Positions 2,323 through 51,644 of a stretch of DNA of 64,000 nucleotides are shown here, piece by piece (position 1 is the first letter of the stretch; each line of letters begins with the position of its first letter). The position numbers and the translations under genes are program-made. This DNA is from Hysterangium stoloniferum (taxonomy: Eukaryota; Basidiomycota; Agaricomycetes; Hysterangiales; Hysterangiaceae). The notes beneath the pieces were generated by a model, which made no database searches, was not told the origin of the DNA, and worked only from the letters and a program-made list of their open reading frames with translations. Location of the stretch: assembly GCA_015178975.1 (NCBI GenBank), contig WHVD01000050.1:372001-436000 (forward strand), in the 5' to 3' direction.

Positions 2323-3976
2323 GTCCAAATTCATATTTCGTATTGGCTACATACTATGCACAACAGCACTGTGAATAGTTTGGAGTTGTTCCCTTGAGTA
2401 AAATTAGTAGCAGGGGAAAGACAAACATACGTACAACACCGTCCACAGAATAATTGTTTATTAATAGGGGAGGTATAACGGCACGAAACCGACAAACCTA
2501 AAAACCGACAATTATCATGAATTATATAGGATACACGCAACGAATAATCTAGGAATACTGGTTGAAATCACTTCTTGGTAAATAGCTCAACAAGAAATAG
2601 CCACCATTGGGTGTCCATAATTATTGGTTTGGGGAGGCGGGGACGGGAAGGCCAGTGAGACAGAAGGACAGAAAACTGCAAGACTGTTATTACAGCGTGA
2701 GGTTCTCTTACTCGGCTAAGCATGGCTCTATACTCTCGGCTATCATCCCAGATATGTATAACTAAAAACGAACGTTATGGCACGTCGCTGGATATGCAAT
2801 GGGTTTATGGCAACAACACAGGGTATTTTCAATATGAGCAAGAATTTGAAAGAATGGTTTTACATTTCCTCGTTGACCATTCCAGTTTGGTTCGAAGTGT
2901 AGATGCTAGCGTCACGGATTTCACGCGTTTGAAATACTTATTTTGTTAAGAATCAAGGTGCCGCGACTTGAACTTATCAGGGTCGGAAATAGACGAACAA
3001 AGAATGAGACTGAAATAAGGCCATGCACTTTTCTTGCACATGTAAACTCTTTGTTCTAGTTTGTCGTCTGTGTCACTTTCATTTCTATCGTTTATGTATC
3101 TTATATAAACCATGCCCTGTAACGAATAGGCTCAGTCGACAAGAGTAGGTGATCCGACTACTGATATTTACTACCTATAACGAATAGGCTACAATTTCGA
3201 CTGAGGTATGGGCTGCGAGTATTGAAGACTAAATAGGCAAGGTCAATGTGAGAGTGAAACAATAGTTGTAAGACATGGTATATGAAAGGAAAGGTAGGAT
3301 ACGGTGTGATGTTGCCGTTTAGGCTTGGCATAAGGCTAGAGTGCGAGAGCCTAATTCAACATGCCCCAATCATAGTTGCCCTTCAGTCCGGTATATAAGT
3401 GCTATCTTATACTCGAGACTGAGACACAAATTTTAAGAGTACCTCTCCACACATTTTGTCGTGGTATAATGTGCAATATATAGACCCCGGAATATGTCCC
3501 AGATCGACATCCCAAAGGAATTTTGTTGGAAGCTGAGTGTGATATAAACCCCACTAATCACACAAGGATCCTTTGAGATTTTGGATCCGTGGCTTTTTTC
3601 TGTGAGTTTAGTTACCGCAGCGCTGGCAAGGACAGACCCGCCCTAGAGTTCAGCCGTCAATTTGTCTCTGGACGACATTTCTCCTATCAGTCACTTTCAT
3701 GAAACCGACCAAGCAGCTATTGAGACAAATTTTCAAACATTTGTTACACTTCCAATATGGGGTCGTACTAGTAGAATGCTAGATGTATTGTGTCCCTTAG
3801 TTCCATATATAGCACCCTCGAATCTTCGCTACGTGCCACGGCAGATTGGCGTTGCCAGTTGCCAAATGTAACGGGCTCAACCGAAGTTTATAATGTAACC
3901 TTATTCGACCATAGGGCGCTGCTGGCCTCGGTGCTGCCGATTAACCGAACATTAAGCAACGACCTTCCAACTGGCA
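2323..3976. other. Intergenic DNA between the first two genes
   Basis: No gene can be supported. A 75-codon frame at 2722-2949 has no recognisable domain. A TATA-like TATATAAG at about 3392 could serve the downstream membrane-protein gene. Frames at 3662-4020 overlap the start of that gene but do not join it through good splice sites. Confidence 0.35.
3129..3206. repeat. Small inverted repeat with CTCAGTCGA / TCGACTGAG ends
   Basis: The segment opens with CTCAGTCGA and closes with TCGACTGAG, and contains two copies of CGAATAGGCT about 60 bp apart. The same end motif occurs as compact palindromes near 60.3 and 60.4 kb, so this is probably a tiny dispersed element or relic of one. Confidence 0.45.
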
Positions 3977-5554
3977 ATGCTTTTCGTTCTGACTCTCCTA
4001 TATCTCTCTCATTGCTCTGACTATGGTACACTTGCACGCCCCATCACTGCGACGCTCTCCTCGAGTCTACTCGCAAGCCCTTTAAGCCCAGACGGCAGTA
4101 TCGCTATCCAGAGATCAATTTGGGATATAATTTGGAGCTGTCTTGTGACGATGACGGCTTGTTCATGGGTTTCTTCCCATCCAAACATTCCTGATCCAGC
4201 TGATGGTTCTATTACTGTCATAGTCAGGAGATTGAAGATAATGTTTTGGGCGCTGATCGCGCCTGAGCTTATTATTATGTGGGCAATGAGGCAGTTTTAC
4301 GGGGCATGCCGCATAAGAGATACTTTCCGAGGTCTGGCTCTCATTCCTTTGGTGCTTGCTGTCATTTACGGAGATCTAGAAAAGGACTGGACACTAACTG
4401 AGGGTCATTTCTTGCAGATGGGCGGTTTTGTTTACTCCAGCAATGGTAGACATGAGGTACTCTCGTTCGTTCGATTCAAGGACCTGGTGAATAGCGGTCA
4501 GATTCAATTCCCCAAGGTTGATAGATCTCAGATTGAGGACAAGAGCAAAGGCGATGCGTTTTCCAAATTCGTCGCAATTTTTCAGACGTCCTGGTTTATC
4601 GTGCAATGTATTGCACGAACGGCGCAGCACCTACCAGTGACACAGCTAGAATTGGCGACGGTTGCCCTAGCTGCGGCAAATGCCTTGATGTACGTATTCT
4701 GGTGGTACAAACCTCAAGGGGTTCGTTGTCCGATTTACATAAAAGCAACGTCCCCTCCTTCGGAAGATTCTCCCATTAATGGGAACACTGAATCGCCGGA
4801 ATTGCGAGGCAGATCTACATGTCGTCAGCAATTACCTTCGGGGTCAGACAACGCGATTGGTTCTTCCCAAGTCCGCCCTGAAGCGCTTGAGGGTGAAGGA
4901 GAAGGGAAAACAAGAAGCTTTTATCTCCTCCCAAGAGTATCAATACTGAGACTCATGCCAGACCTTGTATGGCGAATCGATATGGGAAAAACTGTAACGC
5001 ATGTTCCGATGCTGTACTCTATCGACCCGGATGGGCCAGATGGCGAAAACACCAGATTTTATCAAATAGTGGTAACCGGCGCCGCCGTCGGAACGATCTT
5101 CGGAACGATTCATTGCATTGCATGGAACTTTGAATTTCCATCACGGGTCGAGAATGATTTATGGCGGGCTTCCTCGCTTGTTGTGACCGCTATCCCGGTT
5201 CTTCTCATCATTACAGAGGTGGTTTATCGAGGGGTGTCCAGTTCGGTCAAGGGGGACGGTCGGGATCCCTCAGAGGTCGAAAAGGATACCCCTAACCCAT
5301 CGGCGCCGCAGGAAACTGTTATGAATGATGTAAAACCGCGCCGCAAAAAAGCAATTAGCTTCACATCAATGGCATATGGTCTGCTTTTGAAGACCGGTGG
5401 CAGCATATATATAGTACTCTCAGTCATGTCTGTTTTTTTATACATTACTGCTCGCATTATCCTTCTCACTGAAGCTGTTATCTCTTTGAGACGCCTCCCT
5501 CATAGTGCACTGGACGGCGTTCAATGGGTTCTTTCAATTCCACACACGGGATAA
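3977..5554 (+). CDS. Multi-pass membrane protein, agaricomycete-type family of unknown function
   Basis: Single uninterrupted frame of 525 codons. Residues 1-13 look like a signal peptide. Hydrophobic spans are visible near 48-66, 86-105, 118-130, 198-213, 222-243, 355-378, 394-414 and 474-500; a long hydrophilic, serine/glutamate-rich loop lies near 250-315. Family-like landmarks are a segment IIWSCLVTMTACSWVSSHPN near residue 51, a FWWYKPQGVRCP segment after the fifth span, and a short C-terminal tail ending in IPHTG. From memory, proteins of this layout occur in many copies in mushroom-forming fungi with no known function. The start is supported because the frame opens with the hydrophobic leader and the known landmarks follow at the usual distance. 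Function, partners and substrate cannot be stated. Confidence 0.75.
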   Translation: MLFVLTLLYLSHCSDYGTLARPITATLSSSLLASPLSPDGSIAIQRSIWDIIWSCLVTMTACSWVSSHPNIPDPADGSITVIVRRLKIMFWALIAPELIIMWAMRQFYGACRIRDTFRGLALIPLVLAVIYGDLEKDWTLTEGHFLQMGGFVYSSNGRHEVLSFVRFKDLVNSGQIQFPKVDRSQIEDKSKGDAFSKFVAIFQTSWFIVQCIARTAQHLPVTQLELATVALAAANALMYVFWWYKPQGVRCPIYIKATSPPSEDSPINGNTESPELRGRSTCRQQLPSGSDNAIGSSQVRPEALEGEGEGKTRSFYLLPRVSILRLMPDLVWRIDMGKTVTHVPMLYSIDPDGPDGENTRFYQIVVTGAAVGTIFGTIHCIAWNFEFPSRVENDLWRASSLVVTAIPVLLIITEVVYRGVSSSVKGDGRDPSEVEKDTPNPSAPQETVMNDVKPRRKKAISFTSMAYGLLLKTGGSIYIVLSVMSVFLYITARIILLTEAVISLRRLPHSALDGVQWVLSIPHTG

Positions 5555-6272: not shown

Positions 6273-9200
6273 CTATGCTAGTCCCAGTAGTTTTCGTAAG
6301 TATTCTACCTTTGGCTTAGCCAATGGTTTTGTCAATAAATCAGCAGGCATCTCTGAAGTAGGGAGATGAACAACTTTGATCTTCCCACTATCAACTTCCT
6401 GCCTTAACCAATATGTTCTCAAATCCAGATGCTTCATACGGCCATGATGTTCAGGATCTCTGGCAACTGCAATAGAAGATTGGTTGTCAAGATACAAAGT
6501 GGATGCAGTCTTTTGAGGATATCCCAATTCCTCAAATAAGTTTCGCAACCATAGCACTTCCTGACCAGCTGACACTGCTGCAATATACTCTGCTTCAGTA
6601 GTAGAGAGAGTTACAATAGTCTGGAGTTTGCTCTGCCAGCTAATGGCTCCAGTACCCATCTTAACCACATATGCACCAGTAGATTTTCCAGTTGACTTAT
6701 CACCTCCATGGTCAGCATCTGAATAAGACACAAATAATTCCCTGTCATTACTAGGGCCAAAGGTCAAGCCCAAGTCAAGGGTGCCTTTGAGATATCGAAA
6801 GAGATGTTGTACTGCTAGCCAATGAGCCTTTCCTGGATTGTGATTAAATCTGGCTAATACTCCAACAGTATAGGCAATGTCTGGATGAGTGGCAACAGCC
6901 AAATACATAAGAGAACCAACAGCATGGATGTATGGAATGTCCTTCATGTATGCAATCTCTTCAGGAGACACTGGAGCCTGGTCTTTACTCAATTTTGAGT
7001 TAGGTATCATAGGTGTACCAATGGGATTGCAGTCAGCAAGACCATAACGCTGTAACATGTCCAAGATGTATTGACGCTGTGATAGAGTAATAGTACGCTT
7101 TGTCCTGTCTCTTTCAATGCCAACACCTAACAAGTAAGAAGTAGGACCAAGATCATGCAATTTGAAGTGGCTCTTTAGATCATCTTTGAGCTTTTTGATA
7201 GCCTCCTTGGATTTAGATGCAATAGTCATGTCATCTACAAATACTGGTATAATGACTTTGACATCACCCTTTTGGAAGACCCAAATGCTATGATCGCATA
7301 GCACTTGTTTGAAACCCAAACTGAGCAGGACAGCATTCAACTTCTTGTGCCAGATACGAGGTGACTGGCGTAAACCATATAGTCCTTTCAGAAGAAGTAA
7401 GAACTCATCACGAGCACCTTGGTGAAAACCTTCAGGCTGCTGCAAGTATACTTCCTCTTCAAGTTCACCATTCAAGAATGCAGAGGAGATATCTACACTC
7501 TCAAGTTCCATGTCCTCCAGTGCAGCCAATGCTAGGACAGCACGCAAAGTGGCCCATTTGGCAGTAGGAGCAAAGGTATCAGTGAAGTCAAACCCTGGTC
7601 GTTGTGCATAGCCTTTTGCAACAAGACGAGCTTTGAACTTGTCAATTGACCCATCCTTCTTACGCTTGATCACAAACACCCAACGAGAGCCAATAGCTTT
7701 ACGACCCTCAGGTAGTTTAGCAAGGCGAAAAGTGCCATTTTCAAGCAGGGATTGCATTTCTGCATATGCAGCGTCATACCACTTGTCAGCATCAGGACTT
7801 TGTAAGGCCTCTTTGAGAGTTCTCGGTGCATCATCATGAGCACTGGCCTTGTAGGCAAACTCAAAGGCTTCATCCACACCAATATAAAGATCTCCCTCAC
7901 TGGCAGCTAGGGCTTCTTCCTCAGACTCAACTGGAGGAGGAGAATGTAGTGGAGAATCCTCTGCCTCATCACTGGACTCAACTACAGGAGTAGATTCTCT
8001 ATAGTTGTGGATGTGAGCAGGGTCAACTTGCCAGAAACGCTTAGGAGGAACTCTGTTTCTGGGTGGATTGCGACGTGGTTGAGGAGGAGGACTCGGTGAA
8101 CGTTCAGAATGTTCAGAATTAGAATCAGAGTTGGAACTAGGACCAGGAGGCAAAGCATTATTCTGACCATCTCCCACTGGATTTGGTTCCTGTGGAGCTT
8201 CCATCTGATTAGGCTGGGCTCCCACCTGAATAGACCTAGAGGGTCCAGGAATAAACAAATCAATAAATTGTGGAGTATCAGGAAGAACATCAGGAGCAGT
8301 AGGAGTAGAAGGTATGGCAGGTTTAGACAAGCCTGGTAAGACTCTCTCATCAAAGACAGCATTATTACTGATAATAGTCTTCTTAGTCAAGGGATTGTAA
8401 AACATCCAACCCTTATAATCTGGAGGATATCCAATAAAGACACATTTCTGTGTATGAGAGCCAAGTCCAATACGTTGATCCTTCTGTACATGCACATAAG
8501 CAGTACAGCCAAATACCCTAAGATGTGATACTTCTGGTTTCCTACTATGCCAAACAGTATAAGGCACAGAATGCTTAAGAGCAGTGGTAGGTGAGCAGTT
8601 GCGCACATGAGTAATGGCAATGACAGCATGTCCCCAGAATGAGGGAGGGAGGTGGGATTCAGCCATAATTGAAGTAGCCCCTTCTTCCAATGTTCTGTTG
8701 AAGCGTTCAGCAACCCCATTCTGATGTGGTTCATTCCGCACAGTATGCTGCCGGCTGATGCCAGCAGTGGAAAGGAAGGTATCAAACTCCTTAGACATAT
8801 ATTCTCCACCCTTGTCATCTCTGAATATCTTGATCTTCTGACCAAGCAAGTTCTCCACTTTAGCCTTATATTGCTTAAATGCCTGAAAGGCATCACTCTT
8901 ATTTTTGAGTAATGCAATCGAAGCATAGCGTGAGGCATCATCAATGAAAGTGATCCAGTAGCGAAACCCTTCCACAGTTTGTGTAGGCAAGGGACCATGA
9001 ACATCACTGTGAATGAGTGCAAGTGGTTTAGTATAGCGTGTTGTTGCTATTTTATTAATCACTCTGTTCTGTTTTCCAGCCAAACAAGGTTCACAAATAG
9101 GATCAGGAGACGTGTGAGAGTCAATCTTTATCCCACCAACCAAATCACCTTTGAGGAGCTTCTGGATATCGGCATGATTGAGATGATTAAAGCGACGATG

Positions 9201-10517
9201 CCAAAGTGTGGAGTCCAAGGGACAGGTTGTAACAAGACCTGCATAATCCGTCATAGGTACCGTCATTCCATCCAAATAGGCCTGGTTATGTTCATTGACT
9301 GTGGCAGTGAAACGCAAGACCTTTCTCAAATAGAAAGACATGGTGGAATGAAAGATAGAGACACGGAAATTCTTTCTCTTTGTCAAATACAAGACGGAGA
9401 GGAGGTTACTTGTGAGATGGGGAACATGGAGAACCCTTTCAAACTCTATTATTACATTTCCATTCCCTTTAGGCTTAAACCGCACTGCTCCTATCCCTGC
9501 AGACATAACTATTTGTCCATTTGCAACTTGGATAGGTGTTTGAAACGGGGTATAACTTGAAAACCAATGACGATGGGGAGTCATGTGCGAAGAAGCACCT
9601 GTGTCAGCAGTCCAGTCAGAACTAGCATTGACAAGGAGAGCACAAGATGGATCGGTAGAGTCAGGGATAGAAACACTTGCATTTCCAGCACTCTCTGGTT
9701 TCTTCTCCTCTGATACCTTGTCAGACGCACTAGCTTTGTCAGCCTTAGCAGTCTTTCTTTCTTTATACTCCTTTTTCTTCTGCTCAACTTTGGCCTTTGC
9801 CTGTTTCTGTGCATTTGCATACTCGTAACAATTGTCTTGGGTGTGGGTGGAACCATTGCAGAATGTGCAAGGAACTTTACCAGAAGTGTTGGAAGTCTTT
9901 GACACAATTTTGTTCGCCATCTCTAAACTTCTGGCAGACTGCAAACTCTCTTGTGATGCAAAGTGAGTTTTGACATCAGAGAATGTGATAGCAGTATTCA
10001 TCATTAAAGATGAAGTCCACACAGAGTCAGATTCAGGCAGAGAACGAAGTAAAGTGAGAGCAGCAAGCTCATCATCCAGCATGGCAAGAGTGTACCCCTT
10101 TGGACGCAAGTTCTGGACACGTGCACAAACCTTGTCAACACGACTCATTAATGAAGTTAGAGATTCATCAGGTTCCTTCCGAATATTAAAGAGGTCATTG
10201 TAGGCACTAAAACGAACTGCAGGGAGTTGTTTATTATGTGCCTTGTCAATTTTAGACCACATATCATCAGGACCATCATCAATGTCAACATGGGTGCGCT
10301 GTGTAGGTCCAAGAGAGCGCCATATGATACCAGCTGCTTTATTGGAGCGCTCCAACCAGGCAGACTGTAAACTAGTCTCACTAGGTTGTTTTTCTTTGCC
10401 AGTGGCAATAGAGAGACAGTTCTCCATACGCAAAAGACCAATTATGTCATGTCTCCAATCCTCATAATTATTCTCTCCCAATATGACACTACATTTGTAA
10501 GTATCACTGGATGCCAT
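6273..10517 (-). CDS. Copia Gag-Pol polyprotein
   Basis: 1414 codons in one frame, the usual length for fungal Copia. Seen in order: a Gag region (about 1-210) with a CX2CX4HX4C zinc knuckle near residue 218; protease motif DTGASSHM near 303; pre-integrase HHCC region near 440-480; integrase core near 500-640; reverse transcriptase with the FVDDM active-site box near 1120; RNase H with SDADHGG and the TEAEY motif near the C-terminus. Gag and Pol share one frame, as in many Copia elements. The start is the ATG about 600 bases inside the 5' LTR. It copies its own RNA into DNA and inserts it. Confidence 0.95.
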   Translation of the reverse strand: MASSDTYKCSVILGENNYEDWRHDIIGLLRMENCLSIATGKEKQPSETSLQSAWLERSNKAAGIIWRSLGPTQRTHVDIDDGPDDMWSKIDKAHNKQLPAVRFSAYNDLFNIRKEPDESLTSLMSRVDKVCARVQNLRPKGYTLAMLDDELAALTLLRSLPESDSVWTSSLMMNTAITFSDVKTHFASQESLQSARSLEMANKIVSKTSNTSGKVPCTFCNGSTHTQDNCYEYANAQKQAKAKVEQKKKEYKERKTAKADKASASDKVSEEKKPESAGNASVSIPDSTDPSCALLVNASSDWTADTGASSHMTPHRHWFSSYTPFQTPIQVANGQIVMSAGIGAVRFKPKGNGNVIIEFERVLHVPHLTSNLLSVLYLTKRKNFRVSIFHSTMSFYLRKVLRFTATVNEHNQAYLDGMTVPMTDYAGLVTTCPLDSTLWHRRFNHLNHADIQKLLKGDLVGGIKIDSHTSPDPICEPCLAGKQNRVINKIATTRYTKPLALIHSDVHGPLPTQTVEGFRYWITFIDDASRYASIALLKNKSDAFQAFKQYKAKVENLLGQKIKIFRDDKGGEYMSKEFDTFLSTAGISRQHTVRNEPHQNGVAERFNRTLEEGATSIMAESHLPPSFWGHAVIAITHVRNCSPTTALKHSVPYTVWHSRKPEVSHLRVFGCTAYVHVQKDQRIGLGSHTQKCVFIGYPPDYKGWMFYNPLTKKTIISNNAVFDERVLPGLSKPAIPSTPTAPDVLPDTPQFIDLFIPGPSRSIQVGAQPNQMEAPQEPNPVGDGQNNALPPGPSSNSDSNSEHSERSPSPPPQPRRNPPRNRVPPKRFWQVDPAHIHNYRESTPVVESSDEAEDSPLHSPPPVESEEEALAASEGDLYIGVDEAFEFAYKASAHDDAPRTLKEALQSPDADKWYDAAYAEMQSLLENGTFRLAKLPEGRKAIGSRWVFVIKRKKDGSIDKFKARLVAKGYAQRPGFDFTDTFAPTAKWATLRAVLALAALEDMELESVDISSAFLNGELEEEVYLQQPEGFHQGARDEFLLLLKGLYGLRQSPRIWHKKLNAVLLSLGFKQVLCDHSIWVFQKGDVKVIIPVFVDDMTIASKSKEAIKKLKDDLKSHFKLHDLGPTSYLLGVGIERDRTKRTITLSQRQYILDMLQRYGLADCNPIGTPMIPNSKLSKDQAPVSPEEIAYMKDIPYIHAVGSLMYLAVATHPDIAYTVGVLARFNHNPGKAHWLAVQHLFRYLKGTLDLGLTFGPSNDRELFVSYSDADHGGDKSTGKSTGAYVVKMGTGAISWQSKLQTIVTLSTTEAEYIAAVSAGQEVLWLRNLFEELGYPQKTASTLYLDNQSSIAVARDPEHHGRMKHLDLRTYWLRQEVDSGKIKVVHLPTSEMPADLLTKPLAKPKVEYLRKLLGLA

Positions 10518-11103
10518 GACACGTCAATATCCACCAAGAATTTAACTTAAAAAGAACTAAGTAATTGGACTTGCAGTTGTAACACCGCCTTGCTCAACAG
10601 GGTTACCGTGATATTGCAAGGAAGGTAAAAACAAAGGCCCACTGAAGAGCACAATGCCAACAGTTCAAGTTCAATGTATCTAAAAGACCGTGTTAAAAAG
10701 GGAAAATGACGTGGCACAGACCCAGATGATACTGTGAAGTGCTTGAGGTGTGAGGGAAGAGTGTGACTGGAGAGAGAGGTGACAGGGTGTGACAGGGTGA
10801 GTCACAAGGGTGATAAAAATGAAGTTGCCCAAAAAAGGGAAATTGAGCGACGACAAGCGATTTGGAGCGTGGGAATATATGTCCTTTTATGGACACGGGC
10901 GCCTAAATGGGCGAAAAATGCGCACAATCACAGGTGTGAGATGTGAGTCCAAAAAGCGACCAAATCAGGCCAAAATCCAAGGAGATATAACCAAAATAAA
11001 ATCCAAACGCAATGTAGAGTGTTTTGGACAAGTAGAAGTTGTCAGAAAAGATGTGCAAAGTGATGGATTGCGCAGATGACAACTGGATGTACCGGTTTAG
11101 AAG

Positions 11104-25230: not shown

Positions 25231-26831
25231 CAGTAGGCAACAAAACCCTTACAATGTTTTGTACTTTTTGAAAGACATGGCTATTCCTCCAGAAATAAGT
25301 TCTGTAAAATGCCGAAAATATTATGTAATATACTTCAACATCATACCTTCCAGAAATGCACAGCCACAAGGCACCATGTCCTTATTTGGTAAGTCCACAT
25401 CACACACAAACCAATAGTTCATTGTAAGGGTTTTGTTGCACACTATTTTGAGACTATTATTACAAGAAATTAGTAGTTAGTATGGCCCCCCTTTGCTCTA
25501 ATCACTGCTGCAAGTCTTCTAGGCATACTCTCAATAAGCTTCTGACACTCCTCCTTTGGAATCTCTTCCCACACCTTCTGCACCCTCTCCCACAGTTCAT
25601 GAACACTATTTGCAGGCTGTTCATACTCCCCCAGCTTCTTTTTGACATGATTCCACAGATGTTCAATAGGATTCATGTCAGGAGATTGTGCAGGCCACTT
25701 GAGGACTGTAACATCATGGTCAATGAACCATTTCTGGGCCTTTTTGTTGGTGTGTTTGAGGTCATTGTCTTGTTGAAACACAATGTCAGCCACTGTTTTG
25801 TTGTAATATTTGAGGGTTTGCTGGAGTTCATCATCCAGGATCTCCACATAAAGCTCAGCATCCATCCTCCCATCAATTTTGGTTGCAAACCCAACCCCAT
25901 CCCAGCCCACGCATTCCCACATCATCACGTTTCCTCCTCCAAACTTGACTGTTCCCTCTACTAACCTATCATTTAACCCCTCACCCACATTTTTCCACAC
26001 ATTTTTCCTTCTATCTGATCCCAGCCTATTAATCTTAGTCTCATCAGACCATATGACCCTCTTCCAGTCCTCCAGGGTCCATTCCAAATGCCTTTCTGCA
26101 AACTCCAATCGAGATTTCTGATGATGAGGTTTGAGAAGTGGCCCTTTTCTCTTTACCACAGTCCTCATGCCTAAGGTTTTGAGGTGGTGATGCACTGTTT
26201 GTGAAGTAATAGGAGTGTTGATGATGTCTATAAGTTTCTTGGTTGCCTGTGTGGCATTATCAACCTTCCCCATGCAAATTATTCTTCTAGCATAGGCAAC
26301 ATGGCTGTGGTAAGCTTTGTAGGATGGCCACCAGAGCATTTGGGGAGGTCAGGGCAATGCTCAGAGTGAATACAACTGATGGTGGCACTGCTGAGATGAG
26401 TTTGGTAACATATTTGAGCTCCAGAAATGCCAGAGTCAAGTAGAGTAAGAACATGTTGGATTTGGCTGGAGGAGAGCTTTTTCATTGTGAGTAGGGTGAT
26501 TGTGGGATTCCAACTGGTTGCTTTCATCTTATATACATTGAGGAAGAGTGGTCACATGGCTTTGTTGAACTTTATAAACAAAGTCATGTGACTAGGACCC
26601 ATTTTGAACTTCAAAAATGTGTGCAACAAAACCCTTACAATGAGCTATTGGTTTGTGTGTGATGTGAACTTACCAAATAAGGATGTGGTGCCTTGTGGCT
26701 GTGCATTTCTGGAAGGTATGATGTTGAAGTATATTACATAATATTTTCGGCATTTTACAGAACTTATTTCTGGAGGAATAGCCATGTCTTTCAAAAAGTA
26801 CAAAACATTGTAAGGGTTTTGTTGCCTACTG
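25231..26831 (-). mobile_element. Tc1/mariner element C, nearly complete
   Basis: 1601 bp flanked by TA (25229-25230, 26832-26833). Terminal inverted repeats of about 210 bp start CAGTAGGCAACAAAACCC at both ends and are closed on the inner side by inverted copies of the same site (25421-25440, 26620-26640). It belongs to the same family as element E. It inserted into the larger MULE-like element. Confidence 0.92.
25470..26485 (-). pseudogene. Tc1 transposase of element C (DD34E), one frameshift
   Basis: Cut-and-paste transposase. The N-terminal helix-turn-helix half starts MKKLSSSQIQHVLTLLDSG near 26485, and the remaining 289-codon frame ends at 25470. The two frames overlap near 26280-26339, consistent with one frameshift. 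Catalytic residues are visible: Asp in VIWSDETKI, Asp in FQQDNDLKH and Glu in NPIEHLW, with exactly 34 residues between the last two. This is the Tc1 signature. The C-terminus ends RAKGGHTNY as in relatives. Confidence 0.88.
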
Positions 26832-32859: not shown

Positions 32860-33568
32860 ATTGTGGAATTCACCTACAATAACTCTCCAAATGCAACTAC
32901 CAGCATCTCTCCCTTTTTCGTCAACAAAGGCTATAATCCGAATCTCACAGTACATTCCAAATGAGATTTGGCTTCTATCTGTGCTCAAGAATTTATTACC
33001 AATCTCAACGAGTTACATCAAGAACTTCAGAAAGCTATTTCTTCTGCCCAGGAATATTATCAACGTTCCACGGACAAAAACAGGATCCCGCCTCCTAATT
33101 TTAAAATTGGTGATCAGGTTTTTGTAAAAGCTCAATTCTTCTGTACCACCTGACCTTCTAAAAAACTTGCTGAGAAATTCTTAGGCCTTTTTGAAATTAT
33201 AGCACAAGCCAGTTCACTTTCATGGACTCTCCAACTTCCCAATAGTATGCAAGCAGTCCACCACATTTTCCACATTTCCATGTTAGAACCTTGTGTTCCT
33301 AACAATATCCCGGAACATACTCAACCTCTGCCCCCTCCGGTCATCATTGATGGAGAACCCGAATTTGAAGTTTCTGAGATCTTGGATTCAAAAATTGACA
33401 ATCACCAACATACTTGTAAATTGCTCTATCTAGTCAAATGGGCAGGTTATGAAGGTACCGATGAGGAAACTTCATGGATATTGACTACAGAACTTGGACA
33501 CACTATGGAAATTGTTACCAATTTCCACACAGTTTATCCGAGTAAACCCAGACCTTTATCCTCACTCT
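32860..33568 (+). pseudogene. Integrase C-terminal region with chromodomain (Gypsy fossil)
   Basis: The sequence encodes a typical Gypsy integrase tail followed by a chromodomain with LYLVKWAGYEGTDEETSW, the aromatic cage region that in living relatives reads histone marks. It identifies the parent as a chromovirus-type Ty3/Gypsy element. Broken fossil. Confidence 0.8.
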
Positions 33569-48930: not shown

Positions 48931-51644
48931 ATGCACTCTGTCGCTCTCTTCGCCGTCGCCATCCTCATTGCCCAGGGTGCAGTGGCCGCCCCCCTCAGGT
49001 GAGTCTCCATGTCCCAAATGTTTACCTACCGGCATGTTTATCAATTCTTCAGTATTCCCAAGATCTCGTCTGGTTCAGGCGTCGGCAGCACTGTTCTCGG
49101 TGGTGTCGCCGCCGGAGCTGGGGGTGCCCTCGTCAGCAACATCTTGGGCGAGATCGAGAGCCTTTTCAAACGTGACGGCGTCACTCTCACTAACGACCAG
49201 AAGAAGCAGATCCTCGTTGCTCTTGTTAACAAGGCCCAGTCTGCTCACCCCAGCAAGCGTGGAATTGTAAGTCATCATATCAGTCCTCATGATACTTGTT
49301 TTTCAATATAGCTTTCTGAATAGGGCTCCACTCTTGCTTCAAGTGCAGCCGCCGGTGCAGGAGGTGCCCTCTTCAGCAACATCTTGGGCGAGATCGAGAG
49401 CCTTTTCAAGCGTGACGGCGCCACTCTCACCAACGACCAGAAGAAGCAGATCCTCGTTGCTCTTGTTAACAAGGCCCAGTCTGCTCACCCCAGCAAGCGT
49501 GGAATTGTAAGTCGTCATATTAATCCACATGATATTTTTTTCTCAATATTACTTTCTGAATAGGGCTCCACTCTTGCCTCAGGTGCAGCCGCCGGTGCAG
49601 GAGGTGCCCTCGTCAGTAACGTACTGACTGAGATCGAGAGCCTGTTTAGGCGTGAGGAACTTGAGGCGCGCGTTGCACCCCCCAAAGCACCCGCCTCGTC
49701 CGGCTCGGGAATTGGCAGCACTATTGTTGGTGGTGTAGCCTCCGGCGCTGCAGGAGCCGCCGTCAGCAACCTCCTGTCCCAAATCGAGGGTCTCTTTTCG
49801 CGTGAGGAACTTGAAGCCCGTGTTGCACCCCCCAAAGCCCCCGCCTCTTCCGGCTCAGGAATTGGCAGCACTATTGCCGGTGGTGTAGCCTCTGGCGCTG
49901 CAGGAGCCGCCGTCAGCAACCTCCTGTCCCAAATCGAGGGTCTCTTTTCGCGTGAGGAACTTGAAGCCCGTGTTGCACCCCCCAAAGCCCCCGCCTCTTC
50001 CGGCTCAGGAATTGGCAGCACTATTGCCGGTGGTGTAGCCTCTGGCGCTGCAGGAGCCGCCGTCAGCAACCTCCTGTCCCAAATCGAGGGTCTCTTTTCG
50101 CGTGAGGAACTTGAAGCCCGTGTTGCACCCCCCAAAGCCCCCGCCTCTTCCGGCTCAGGAATTGGCAGCACTATTGCCGGTGGTGTAGCCTCTGGCGCTG
50201 CAGGAGCTGCCGTCAGCAACCTCCTGTCCCAAATCGAGGGCCTCTTTTCGCGTGAAGAGCTTGAAGCCCGCGTTGCACCCCCCAAAGCACCCGCCTCTTC
50301 CGGCTCAGGAATTGGCAGCACTATTGCCGGTGGTGTTGCCTCCGGAGCTGCAGGAGCTGCCGTCAGCAACCTCCTGTCCCAAATTGAGGGTCTCTTCTCG
50401 CGTGAAGAGCTTGAAGCCCGCGTTGCACCTCCCAAAGCACCCGCTTCTTCCGGCTCAGGAATTGGCAGCACTATTGTCGGTGGTGTTGCCTCCGGAGCTG
50501 CAGGAGCTGCCGTCAGCAACCTCCTATCCCAAATCGAGGGTCTCTTTTCGCGTGAGGAGCTCGAAGCCCGCGTTGCGCCCCCCAAAGCACCCGCTTCTTC
50601 CGGCTCAGGAATTGGCAGCACTATTGCCGGTGGTGTTGCCTCCGGAGCTGCAGGAGCTGCCGTCAGCAACCTCCTGTCCCAAATTGAGGGTCTCTTTTCG
50701 CGTGAGGAACTCGAAGCCCGCGTTGCACCCCCGAAGGCGCCTTCCTCGTCTGGTTCAGGAATTGGCAGTACTATTGCCGGTGGTGTAGCCTCCGGCGCTG
50801 CAGGAGCCGCCGTCAGCAACCTCCTGTCCCAAATTGAAGGCCTCTTCAAGCGTGACGGCACCACCCTCACTAACGACCAGAAGAAGCAGATCCTTGTCGC
50901 TCTTGTTAACAAGGCCCAATCAGCTCACCCCAGCAAGCGTGAGCCTGGTCTCGTCAGCAGCGGTGCTAATGCTGCGGTCGGTGCCGGCGTTAGAGCCGGA
51001 ACCGACGGCATTGTTAGTGGTATATTGACCGATATTGAAAACCTCTTCAAGCGTGAACCTGGCATTGTCCGTCCTACTTATTTTTTCCTCTGTTTCCCCT
51101 TTTAAATCGCTAAACTATAGGGATCCACCATTGCGAAGGGAGCTGCAACTGGAGCCGGCGGCGCTGTCCTCGGCAACTTGTTGGGCCAGATCGAAAGCTT
51201 GTTTAAGCGTGAGCCTGGTATTGTGAGTAGAATCTCCCCCATTAACTATCCAGCATCTCATTGTCATTTTAACACGGCAGGGGTCAACCATTGCCGGAGG
51301 TGTTGCTTCAGGAGCCGGTGGCGCCATTGTTAGCAACCTCTTGGGCGAGATCGAGAGTCTCTTCAAGCGTGACAGCGCCACTCTCACCAACGACCAGAAG
51401 AAGCAGATTCTTGTTGCCCTCGTTAACAAGGCCCAGTCAGCTCGCCCCAGCAAGCGTGAGCCTGGTATTGTACGTCAAATCTCTCCCATTCACTATCCAG
51501 TATCTGACCGTCATTTCAACACGGCAGGGGTCAACCATTGCCGGAGGTGTTGCCTCAGGCGCCAGTGGTGCCGTCGTCAGCAACGTCCTAAACGAGATCG
51601 AAAGTTTGTTCAAGCGCGAGTCTAGCCTTAATGATTTGGATTAG
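48931..51644 (+). CDS. Secreted repetitive precursor with Kex2-type sites between glycine-rich repeats
   Basis: Seven exons: 48931-48998, 49053-49266, 49324-49506, 49564-51066, 51121-51222, 51281-51469, 51528-51644; 791 residues, all phases consistent. Residues 1-21 are a clear signal peptide. KR or RR ends after residues 63, 92, 124, 153, 185, 585, 614, 652, 686, 720, 749 and 783. Between them are two peptide types: type A, about 30-40 residues, opening GIGSTIAGGVASGAGG (glycine-zipper-like) and ending GEIESLF before KR; type B, 29 residues, TLTNDQKKQILVALVNK then SAHPS before KR. Residues 186-585 are eight 50-residue units in which KR is replaced by SR. Several sites are followed by EP, a dipeptidyl-aminopeptidase motif. 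Golgi Kex2 cleavage and secretion of peptides is inferred from architecture, as in Candida Ece1 and Ustilago Rep1; I see no sequence match to either. Confidence 0.88.
49654..50853 (+). repeat. 150-bp coding repeat, eight units
   Basis: Exact period of 150 bp inside exon 4. Each unit encodes EELEARVAPPKAP, a GSGIGST opening and a VSNLLSQIEGLFSR ending. Units 2 to 4 (49804-50253) are almost identical at the DNA level, pointing to recent amplification; the eighth unit ends KR instead of SR and leads back to the single-peptide part. Confidence 0.97.

What the first reader, a model, noticed from the sequence alone, without database searches (positions are those of the whole stretch)
48931..51644. 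Undescribed Kex2-type peptide precursor with two alternating peptide families
The gene encodes a signal peptide, 12 dibasic KR/RR sites, seven separate glycine-rich hydrophobic peptides and four separate copies of a second, lysine-containing peptide. Ece1 (candidalysin) and Rep1 show that fungi use such precursors for membrane-active or surface-coating peptides. I do not recognise this repeat family. Opening residues GIG are also common in membrane-active helical peptides of other kingdoms, which may be coincidence.
Basis: partly seen in the sequence, partly recalled or inferred. Interest (0 to 1): 0.88.

Follow-up and report, generated by a model that had tools for sequence, protein, structure and literature searches.

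The report
Mushroom precursor of three repeated peptides
A fungal gene encodes a secreted-looking protein that seems built to be cut into many copies of small helix-like peptides of three kinds, and relatives of it sit without a known function in several distant mushroom groups.

Summary
The gene at 48931-51644 has seven exons and encodes 791 aa: a signal-like N-terminus, 12 KR/RR sites and four B peptides. There are 15 A-type peptides rather than seven, because seven more lie in an internal block of 150-bp repeats and end in LFSR, and one is a third kind, A2. Copies differ mostly at synonymous sites (dN/dS 0.07-0.25; spacer 0.013), so the frame is under selection.

[quoted passage not shown] Relatives are hypothetical proteins of Ramaria, Clavulina and Peniophora plus metagenome pieces; an inverted paralogue lies about 25 kb away. 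B directly precedes A2 in 13 of 16 cases, in this fungus and in Clavulina. A tail [IL][HND][EDQ]LD ends 12 of 27 proteins and resembles the RSIDELD motif of Serendipita DELD effectors.

Most likely kexin and trimming peptidases release hydrophobic, anionic-to-neutral A peptides and weakly cationic B peptides, which coat surfaces as U. maydis Rep1 repellents do. A membrane-active role is the main rival. Release, expression and function are untested. New variant of a known kind.

The parts
48931..48998 (+). Exon 1: start codon and signal-like N-terminus (48931-48990 codes aa 1-20)
   Evidence: Sequence; splice model; Ramaria P0001 starts alike and P0024 has a like stretch; no signal-peptide predictor was available
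49053..49266 (+). Exon 2: A1 unit 1 and B unit 1
   Evidence: GT..AG borders
49324..49506 (+). Exon 3: A1 unit 2 and B unit 2; intron borders at the same point of the repeat (GI|GST)
49564..51066 (+). Exon 4: nine A1 units, B unit 3 and A2
51121..51222 (+). Exon 5: A1 unit
51281..51469 (+). Exon 6: A1 unit and B unit 4
51528..51644 (+). Exon 7: last A1 unit, C-terminal tail and stop
49654..50853 (+). Internal tandem block, eight 150-nt units (aa 186-585): acidic spacer EELEAR, VAPPKAP linker, A1; seven end in LFSR, the last in LFKR
   Evidence: spacer dN/dS 0.013
49174..49260 (+). B peptide 1 (aa 64-92), DGVTLTNDQKKQILVALVNKAQSAHPSKR
49414..49500 (+). B peptide 2 (aa 125-153)
50854..50940 (+). 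B peptide 3 (aa 586-614)
51371..51457 (+). B peptide 4 (aa 721-749)
50941..51054 (+). A2 peptide (aa 615-652), EPGLVSSGANAAVGAGVRAGTDGIVSGILTDIENLFKR
   Evidence: On the same side of a 100/98 branch as the 10 Clavulina A2 rows; directly follows B as 13 of 16 A2 units do
51618..51641 (+). C-terminal tail ESSLNDLD after the last KR
   Evidence: 12 of 27 proteins end in [IL][HND][EDQ]LD; resembles RSIDELD (paper passages)

Best explanation
The gene encodes a secreted KEX2-processed repeat protein. In the late Golgi, kexin cuts after L-F-K/R-R and P-S-K-R and, less efficiently, after L-x-x-R (LFSR, LEAR). Kex1 then trims the basic residues. A Ste13-like dipeptidyl peptidase removes EP where it precedes GIGST or GLVSS, and possibly VA-PP-KA-PA in the block. 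The products are 14 copies of A1 (rich in small residues, hydrophobic, anionic to neutral, about 30 aa), one A2 and four B peptides (weakly cationic helix). The ELEAR spacers and the C-terminal -LD tail are discarded propeptides. The A peptides most likely assemble into a surface-active film on the fungus's own hyphae, as Rep1 repellents do, with B as a soluble partner. Shown: gene anatomy, selection on the frame, family, module order, genes for kexin-like and DPPIV-like enzymes. Inferred: all cleavages, assembly and function.
For: Splice model and 12 dibasic sites. dN/dS 0.247 (14 A1 copies), 0.146 (six outer A1), 0.072 (eight block A1), 0.100 (B), 0.013 (spacer), against 1.07-2.50 in the other frames. 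Relatives in Ramaria, Clavulina and Peniophora. B directly before A2 in 13 of 16 A2 units over 27 proteins, permutation mean 4.85, reached in 0 of 10000. Leu at P4 at 8 of 12 dibasic and 15 of 17 single-Arg sites of this protein, 7 of 9 and 4 of 6 in Ramaria P0001, and 34 of 44 single-Arg sites in 7 of the 9 Clavulina proteins. EP after 4 of 12 dibasic sites. S8 and P domain matches side by side on C29 and a DPPIV_N gene on C552. Coprinopsis KEPs expressed in Pichia gave products that appear cut after single Arg and trimmed at XA/XP (PMC9769878). Rep1: 12 amphipathic repeats of 34-55 aa, cut by Kex2 into peptides that form surface-active fibrils (PMC4617103 passage). Five A peptides: GRAVY 0.73-1.01, charge -2 to 0.
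Against: No transcript or peptide data could be searched. Cleavage at LFSR and LEAR is not shown. Leu at P4 is not a family-wide rule: dibasic sites in the 7 Clavulina proteins 31 of 71, Peniophora 3 of 11 dibasic and 4 of 18 single Arg, paralogue 2 of 6 and 7 of 39. XP/XA after dibasic sites is rare in Clavulina (9 of 79 over 9 proteins). Structure models are weak: mean pLDDT 54.7 from one sequence and 57.8 with 11 rows; only the B helix and the end of A1 reach about 80. The i+4 ridge of small residues is not clearly beyond composition (322 of 5000 shuffles reach it). Rep1 was not compared by sequence. Six Coprinopsis kep knockouts had no visible phenotype, though those KEPs were not compared with this one.
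Confidence: 0.45

Rival explanations
1. The A peptides are membrane-active: helices rich in small residues insert into membranes of competitors or grazers, possibly with B as a second component.
For: A1 is about 30 aa with GRAVY 0.80-1.01 for the four computed, and 14 of the 18 columns 1-17 and 20 hold small residues in 90% or more of 43 distinct A1 units. The B sequence computed is weakly cationic (+1 to +2). KEP peptides are suggested to serve biotic interactions (PMC9769878 discussion).
Against: A1 is anionic to neutral (-2 to 0). Copies are under purifying selection and show no diversification, unlike many arms-race peptides. No test of activity.
Confidence: 0.25
2. The peptides are signals, in the manner of alpha-pheromone-like KEPs of basidiomycetes.
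For: EP after 4 of 12 dibasic sites; STE13 signatures occur in some basidiomycete KEPs (PMC6339444 passages).
Against: Products of about 30 aa, mostly hydrophobic, no Trp in the protein; three peptide kinds at very different copy numbers.
Confidence: 0.1
3. Secreted effector or interface proteins of a plant-associated fungus, related in use to DELD effectors.
For: The C-terminal tail resembles RSIDELD; mobile-element pieces lie in the same window, and DELD genes are described as lying near transposable elements.
Against: The tail is not RSIDELD itself, the protein is 791 aa against 101-135, and it is not His-rich (0.5% His). The lifestyle of this fungus is unknown.
Confidence: 0.15
4. The protein is not processed and acts as an uncut repetitive wall protein.
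For: The middle block has no dibasic sites except at its ends; the paralogue has 6 dibasic sites in 804 aa.
Against: KR or RR ends A units in this protein, in Ramaria and in most Clavulina units, and B units in this protein.
Confidence: 0.05

Closest known systems
KEX2-processed repeat proteins (KEPs), fungi; Coprinopsis cinerea KEPs (PMC9769878, PMC6339444, PMC7329392)
   Same: Signal-like N-terminus, repeated peptides between dibasic sites, possible Ste13 dipeptides, single-Arg sites.
   Different: Three peptide kinds in a recurring A1-B-A2 order (in the 2019 survey 2 of 1193 KEPs had three repeated kinds and 77 had two), acidic ELEAR spacers, -LD tail.
Rep1 / Hum3 of Ustilago maydis
   Same: Many amphipathic repeats (34-55 aa in Rep1, 31-36 aa in Hum3) between Kex2 sites (PMC4617103 passages).
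   Different: No hydrophobin domain as in Hum3; sequences not compared; a second peptide kind and a tail are not mentioned in the passages read.
Ece1 / candidalysin of Candida albicans
   Same: Kex2-cut multi-peptide precursor (passages of PMC9769878 and PMC7329392).
   Different: Here the main peptide is present in many copies and is anionic to neutral; sequence not compared.
DELD effectors of Serendipita indica
   Same: Their RSIDELD end is like the [IL][HND][EDQ]LD end after Arg or KR here, most closely KR-AINELD in Peniophora P0021.
   Different: DELD proteins are 101-135 aa and His/Ala-rich; they are not described as cut precursors in the passages read.
Class IIb two-peptide bacteriocins (recalled, from no call)
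   Same: Two different helical peptides with small-xxx-small motifs.
   Different: Bacterial; only an analogy from memory.

Membership tests
KEX2-processed repeat proteins (KEPs) | N-terminal signal peptide | tested here: inconclusive
   Hydrophobic N-terminus, mean hydropathy 1.93 over 20 aa; no predictor run
KEX2-processed repeat proteins (KEPs) | Repeated peptides bounded by KR/RR sites | tested here: met
   12 dibasic sites; 8 A-type and 4 B units end at them
KEX2-processed repeat proteins (KEPs) | Processing enzymes in the genome | tested here: met
   S8 and P domain matches adjacent on C29 (the S8 match reads through stops, as introns would give); DPPIV_N on C552. Kex1 not searched
KEX2-processed repeat proteins (KEPs) | Peptides actually released | not testable with these tools
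   No peptidomics or transcript data
Dikaritins (cyclic RiPPs) | Tyr-containing cores and a DUF3328 (UstYa-type) gene nearby (Tyr role recalled) | tested here: not met
   No Tyr, Cys or Trp in 791 aa. No DUF3328 match among the 20 scanned of 33 window ORFs of 130 aa or more; unspliced ORFs only, so the neighbour part is weak
Repellents (Rep1) | Sequence relationship to Rep1 | not tested
   Rep1 sequence was not obtained
Repellents (Rep1) | Surface-active fibrils | not testable with these tools
   Needs bench work
DELD effector family | C-terminal RSIDELD | tested here: not met
   Ends ESSLNDLD; relatives end AINELD, SINELD, EIDELD and similar
DELD effector family | 101-135 aa, His/Ala-rich | tested here: not met
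   791 aa, His 0.5%, Ala 16.7%
Candidalysin (Ece1) | Sequence relationship and cytolysis | not tested
   Not fetched; activity not testable here
Any Pfam family | Match over curated cut-off | tested here: not met
   aa 1-235 and aa 536-791 scanned, none over cut-off; the stretch between repeats the same 50-aa unit

The most novel reading that the evidence does not exclude
The -[IL][ND][ED]LD tail is a cleavable sorting tag of the agaricomycete secretory pathway: it directs kexin-cut precursors (this family) and the DELD effectors of Serendipita to the same Golgi route and is removed at the Arg before it. The A1-B-A2 cassette would then be an old three-part peptide system, shared by this fungus and the Cantharellales, whose parts assemble together.
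Probability: 0.15. Interest if true: 0.78.

Novelty: new variant of a known kind. Interest (0 to 1): 0.55.

Why it matters
KEPs are common in fungi, but most have no known function; in one survey 2,560 of 7,878 had no homologue (PMC7329392 abstract passage). Here the A peptide recurs in three agaricomycete orders, the A1-B-A2 order recurs in this fungus and in Clavulina, and copies are under purifying selection, so the peptides probably do something general. The finding gives defined peptides to synthesise and look for, and a testable reading of the unexplained RSIDELD motif.

Tried and rejected
Pfam on two pieces of the precursor (aa 1-235 and 536-791) gave only sub-threshold matches. PDB by sequence gave no convincing match: one at E 0.02 and six at E 0.68 to 4.3. 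Pfam labels over cut-off on relatives (Voltage_CLC and UvsW-1 on P0001; DUF6440, RLMM_N and RM3_Med14 on P0021; YidB on P0009, 6 of 25 relatives scanned) do not agree with one another; I set them aside as hits of repeats, except that DUF6440 lies on the second repeat of Peniophora P0021, a peptide absent here. Searching more paralogues with Ramaria P0001 found only this gene and the same neighbour.

A helical period for A1 was tested: hydrophobic moment reached by 118 of 5000 column shuffles, for A2 by 16 of 5000; the i+4 contrast of small residues by 322 of 5000. So a 'glycine zipper' is suggestive only. The A1 and A2 sets were picked by patterns that fix the letters around positions 20-23 and 25-30, so those columns say nothing; G13 (43 of 43 A1 units) and the small residues at 8, 9 and 12-17 were not in the patterns. 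A clade test for 12 A2 units (3 P0012 units left out) did not reject one clade but does not show it (p-AU 0.158). In that tree the 3 P0012 units that my pattern called A2 fell on the A1 side, and 6 odd units fell on the A2 side; the nearest row to this gene's A2 is a long-branched Ramaria unit (P0024); 64 rows, 30 columns, bootstrap not settled. Fold searches were not run, since the models are of low confidence. A literature search for the letters of the tail matched 1,930 papers, and the 20 listed were unrelated.

Full report
Observation. Five of the six introns fall between codons, and all five cut the A repeat at GI|GST, so exon and repeat were probably duplicated together. The protein has no Cys, Tyr or Trp.

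Units. There are 12 dibasic sites. Eight A-type units and four B units end at them. A block of eight 50-aa units (DNA period 150 nt) holds eight of the A1 units; seven of these end at LFSR and one at LFKR. In all there are 15 A-type units: 14 A1 and one A2.

Selection. Nei-Gojobori counts between copies give dN/dS 0.247 over 91 pairs of the 14 A1 copies (A2 left out), 0.146 for six outer ones, 0.072 for the eight in the block, 0.100 for the four B copies and 0.013 for the 14-codon spacer in the block. The same DNA in the other two frames gives 1.07 to 2.50. Four stretches compared with the paralogue give 0.237 together. The reading frame, and so the exon model, is under purifying selection. 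The spacer is the most constrained part, which suggests that EELEAR is a working propeptide.

Family. Three protein searches found 25 proteins: P0001-P0005, six more, P0006-P0011, and fourteen more, P0012-P0025. Those with a named organism come from Ramaria rubella (Gomphales), Clavulina sp. PMI_390 (Cantharellales) and Peniophora sp. CONT (Russulales) (orders) and are called 'hypothetical protein'. Peniophora P0021 is joined by the A core, the KR sites and the tail only; it has no B or A2 by my patterns (E 1.1e-14, 8% of the query covered). Ramaria P0001 has seven A1 units and one B-like stretch and no A2. The weakest rows (P0023-P0025, E 5e-7 to 3e-5) are 118-226 aa pieces. Each search scored only the 8,000 or so candidates that share most words, so absence elsewhere means little. 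In the own genome one other locus matched at E up to 1: 4 of 19 matches lie on C442 at 448.7-451.0 kb, minus strand, and 15 in this gene. That paralogue has four exons and 804 aa, keeps the N-terminus, two B units and the ESSLNDLD tail, and has a strongly diverged middle with 6 dibasic sites in all.

Cassette. Over 27 proteins (the 25, this one and the paralogue) A2 is directly preceded by B in 13 of 16 cases; shuffling units within proteins gives 4.85 on average and never 13 in 10,000. Most of these are Clavulina paralogues, so they are not independent; for this gene alone the chance is 0.20. In a tree of 64 distinct A units a branch of support 100/98 separates 46 units, including the eight distinct A1 units of this gene, from 18 others: this gene's A2, ten Clavulina A2 rows, P0010's A2 and six odd units. 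The three P0012 units that my pattern called A2 lie on the A1 side. With 30 columns this is a hint, not proof, that A1 and A2 parted before these fungi did. P0010 from a metagenome has the bare order A1-B-A2.

Processing. The genome has an S8 peptidase match next to a P domain match on C29, as in kexins, and a DPPIV_N gene on C552. Leu stands at P4 at 8 of 12 dibasic sites and at 15 of 17 single-Arg sites of this protein; the 15 are copies of two motifs, LFSR and LEAR. In 7 of the 9 Clavulina proteins it is 34 of 44 single-Arg sites but 31 of 71 dibasic ones; in Ramaria P0001 4 of 6 and 7 of 9; in Peniophora 4 of 18 and 3 of 11, and in the paralogue 7 of 39 and 2 of 6, where no such rule is seen. 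Four of 12 dibasic sites here are followed by EP; in three of these the peptide then reads GIGST, the same start that two other copies have directly after KR, and in one GLVSS. In Clavulina most A1 units follow ELEAR-AP and go on with LS, the start that most A2 units have after KR; but XP or XA follows only 9 of 79 dibasic sites in the nine Clavulina proteins. This fits Ste13-type trimming at some sites, which was inferred from detected peptides in basidiomycetes (PMC9769878: abstract, the first two of nine parts and two sections read).

Peptides. Four A1 sequences of 30 aa have GRAVY 0.80 to 1.01 and charge -2 to 0; A2 (34 aa) has charge -2; one B sequence (27-28 aa) has charge +1 to +2. AlphaFold2 on the A1-B-A2 piece gives three helices with mean pLDDT 57.8; the B helix and the end of A1 reach about 80, the start of A1 and of A2 stay under 50.

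Tail. Twelve of 27 proteins end in [IL][HND][EDQ]LD, the last 6-10 residues after an Arg; 15 do not. One of the 15, P0009, ends NEL in a record marked partial; P0003, P0008 and P0011 of Clavulina lack the tail in records not marked partial; the rest are 118-226 aa pieces. The nearest published motif known to me is RSIDELD of the Serendipita indica DELD family, 101-135 aa, His/Ala-rich, function of the motif unknown (PMC3192844, PMC3708536, PMC4620400, passages). A search for papers with DELD, Kex2 and effector as whole words found none in the library. The proteins here are not DELD effectors by size or composition; only the tail is alike, and it is short.

What it works like. High dose of a small hydrophobic peptide from one precursor, strong conservation and the size of the repeats resemble Rep1 and Hum3 (PMC4617103, passages). 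That is the reading I prefer, at moderate confidence. A membrane-active pair of A and B is the main rival. Literature: PMC6339444 and PMC7329392 were read as passages; the other papers were seen as listings only, except those named above.

Verdict. Expression is not shown. New variant of a known kind.

Noticed in passing
G000 C442:448557-451129 (locus L026, minus strand; about 25 kb from the gene, outside the window): Inverted paralogue of 804 aa with the same ends and a strongly diverged middle; 6 dibasic sites in all.
   Followed up: yes
window 6276-10523, minus: One open frame of 1416 aa with Ty1/copia-type gag, integrase and reverse transcriptase domains.
   Followed up: no
window 25473-26348 minus; 33154-33567 plus: A piece with DDE_3 and Tc3-type transposase domains and a piece with Tf2-type SH3 and chromo domains.
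   Followed up: no
window 3956-5551, plus: Open frame of 532 aa without a Pfam match at E 0.01.
   Followed up: no
P0021 (Peniophora sp. CONT): Its second repeat, with VDTETG(V/T)IY, matches DUF6440 well over the cut-off (68.5 against 26.5 bits), although it lies between kexin-like sites.
   Followed up: no
P0006 B units (LSPADKAAIKNALMNKIG): Looks like the first helix of vertebrate alpha globin as I recall it; probably chance.
   Followed up: no
P0001 residue 65 and the A1 unit at aa 655 of the window protein: These two single copies group together (96/87), so some repeat copies may be old orthologues.
   Followed up: partly
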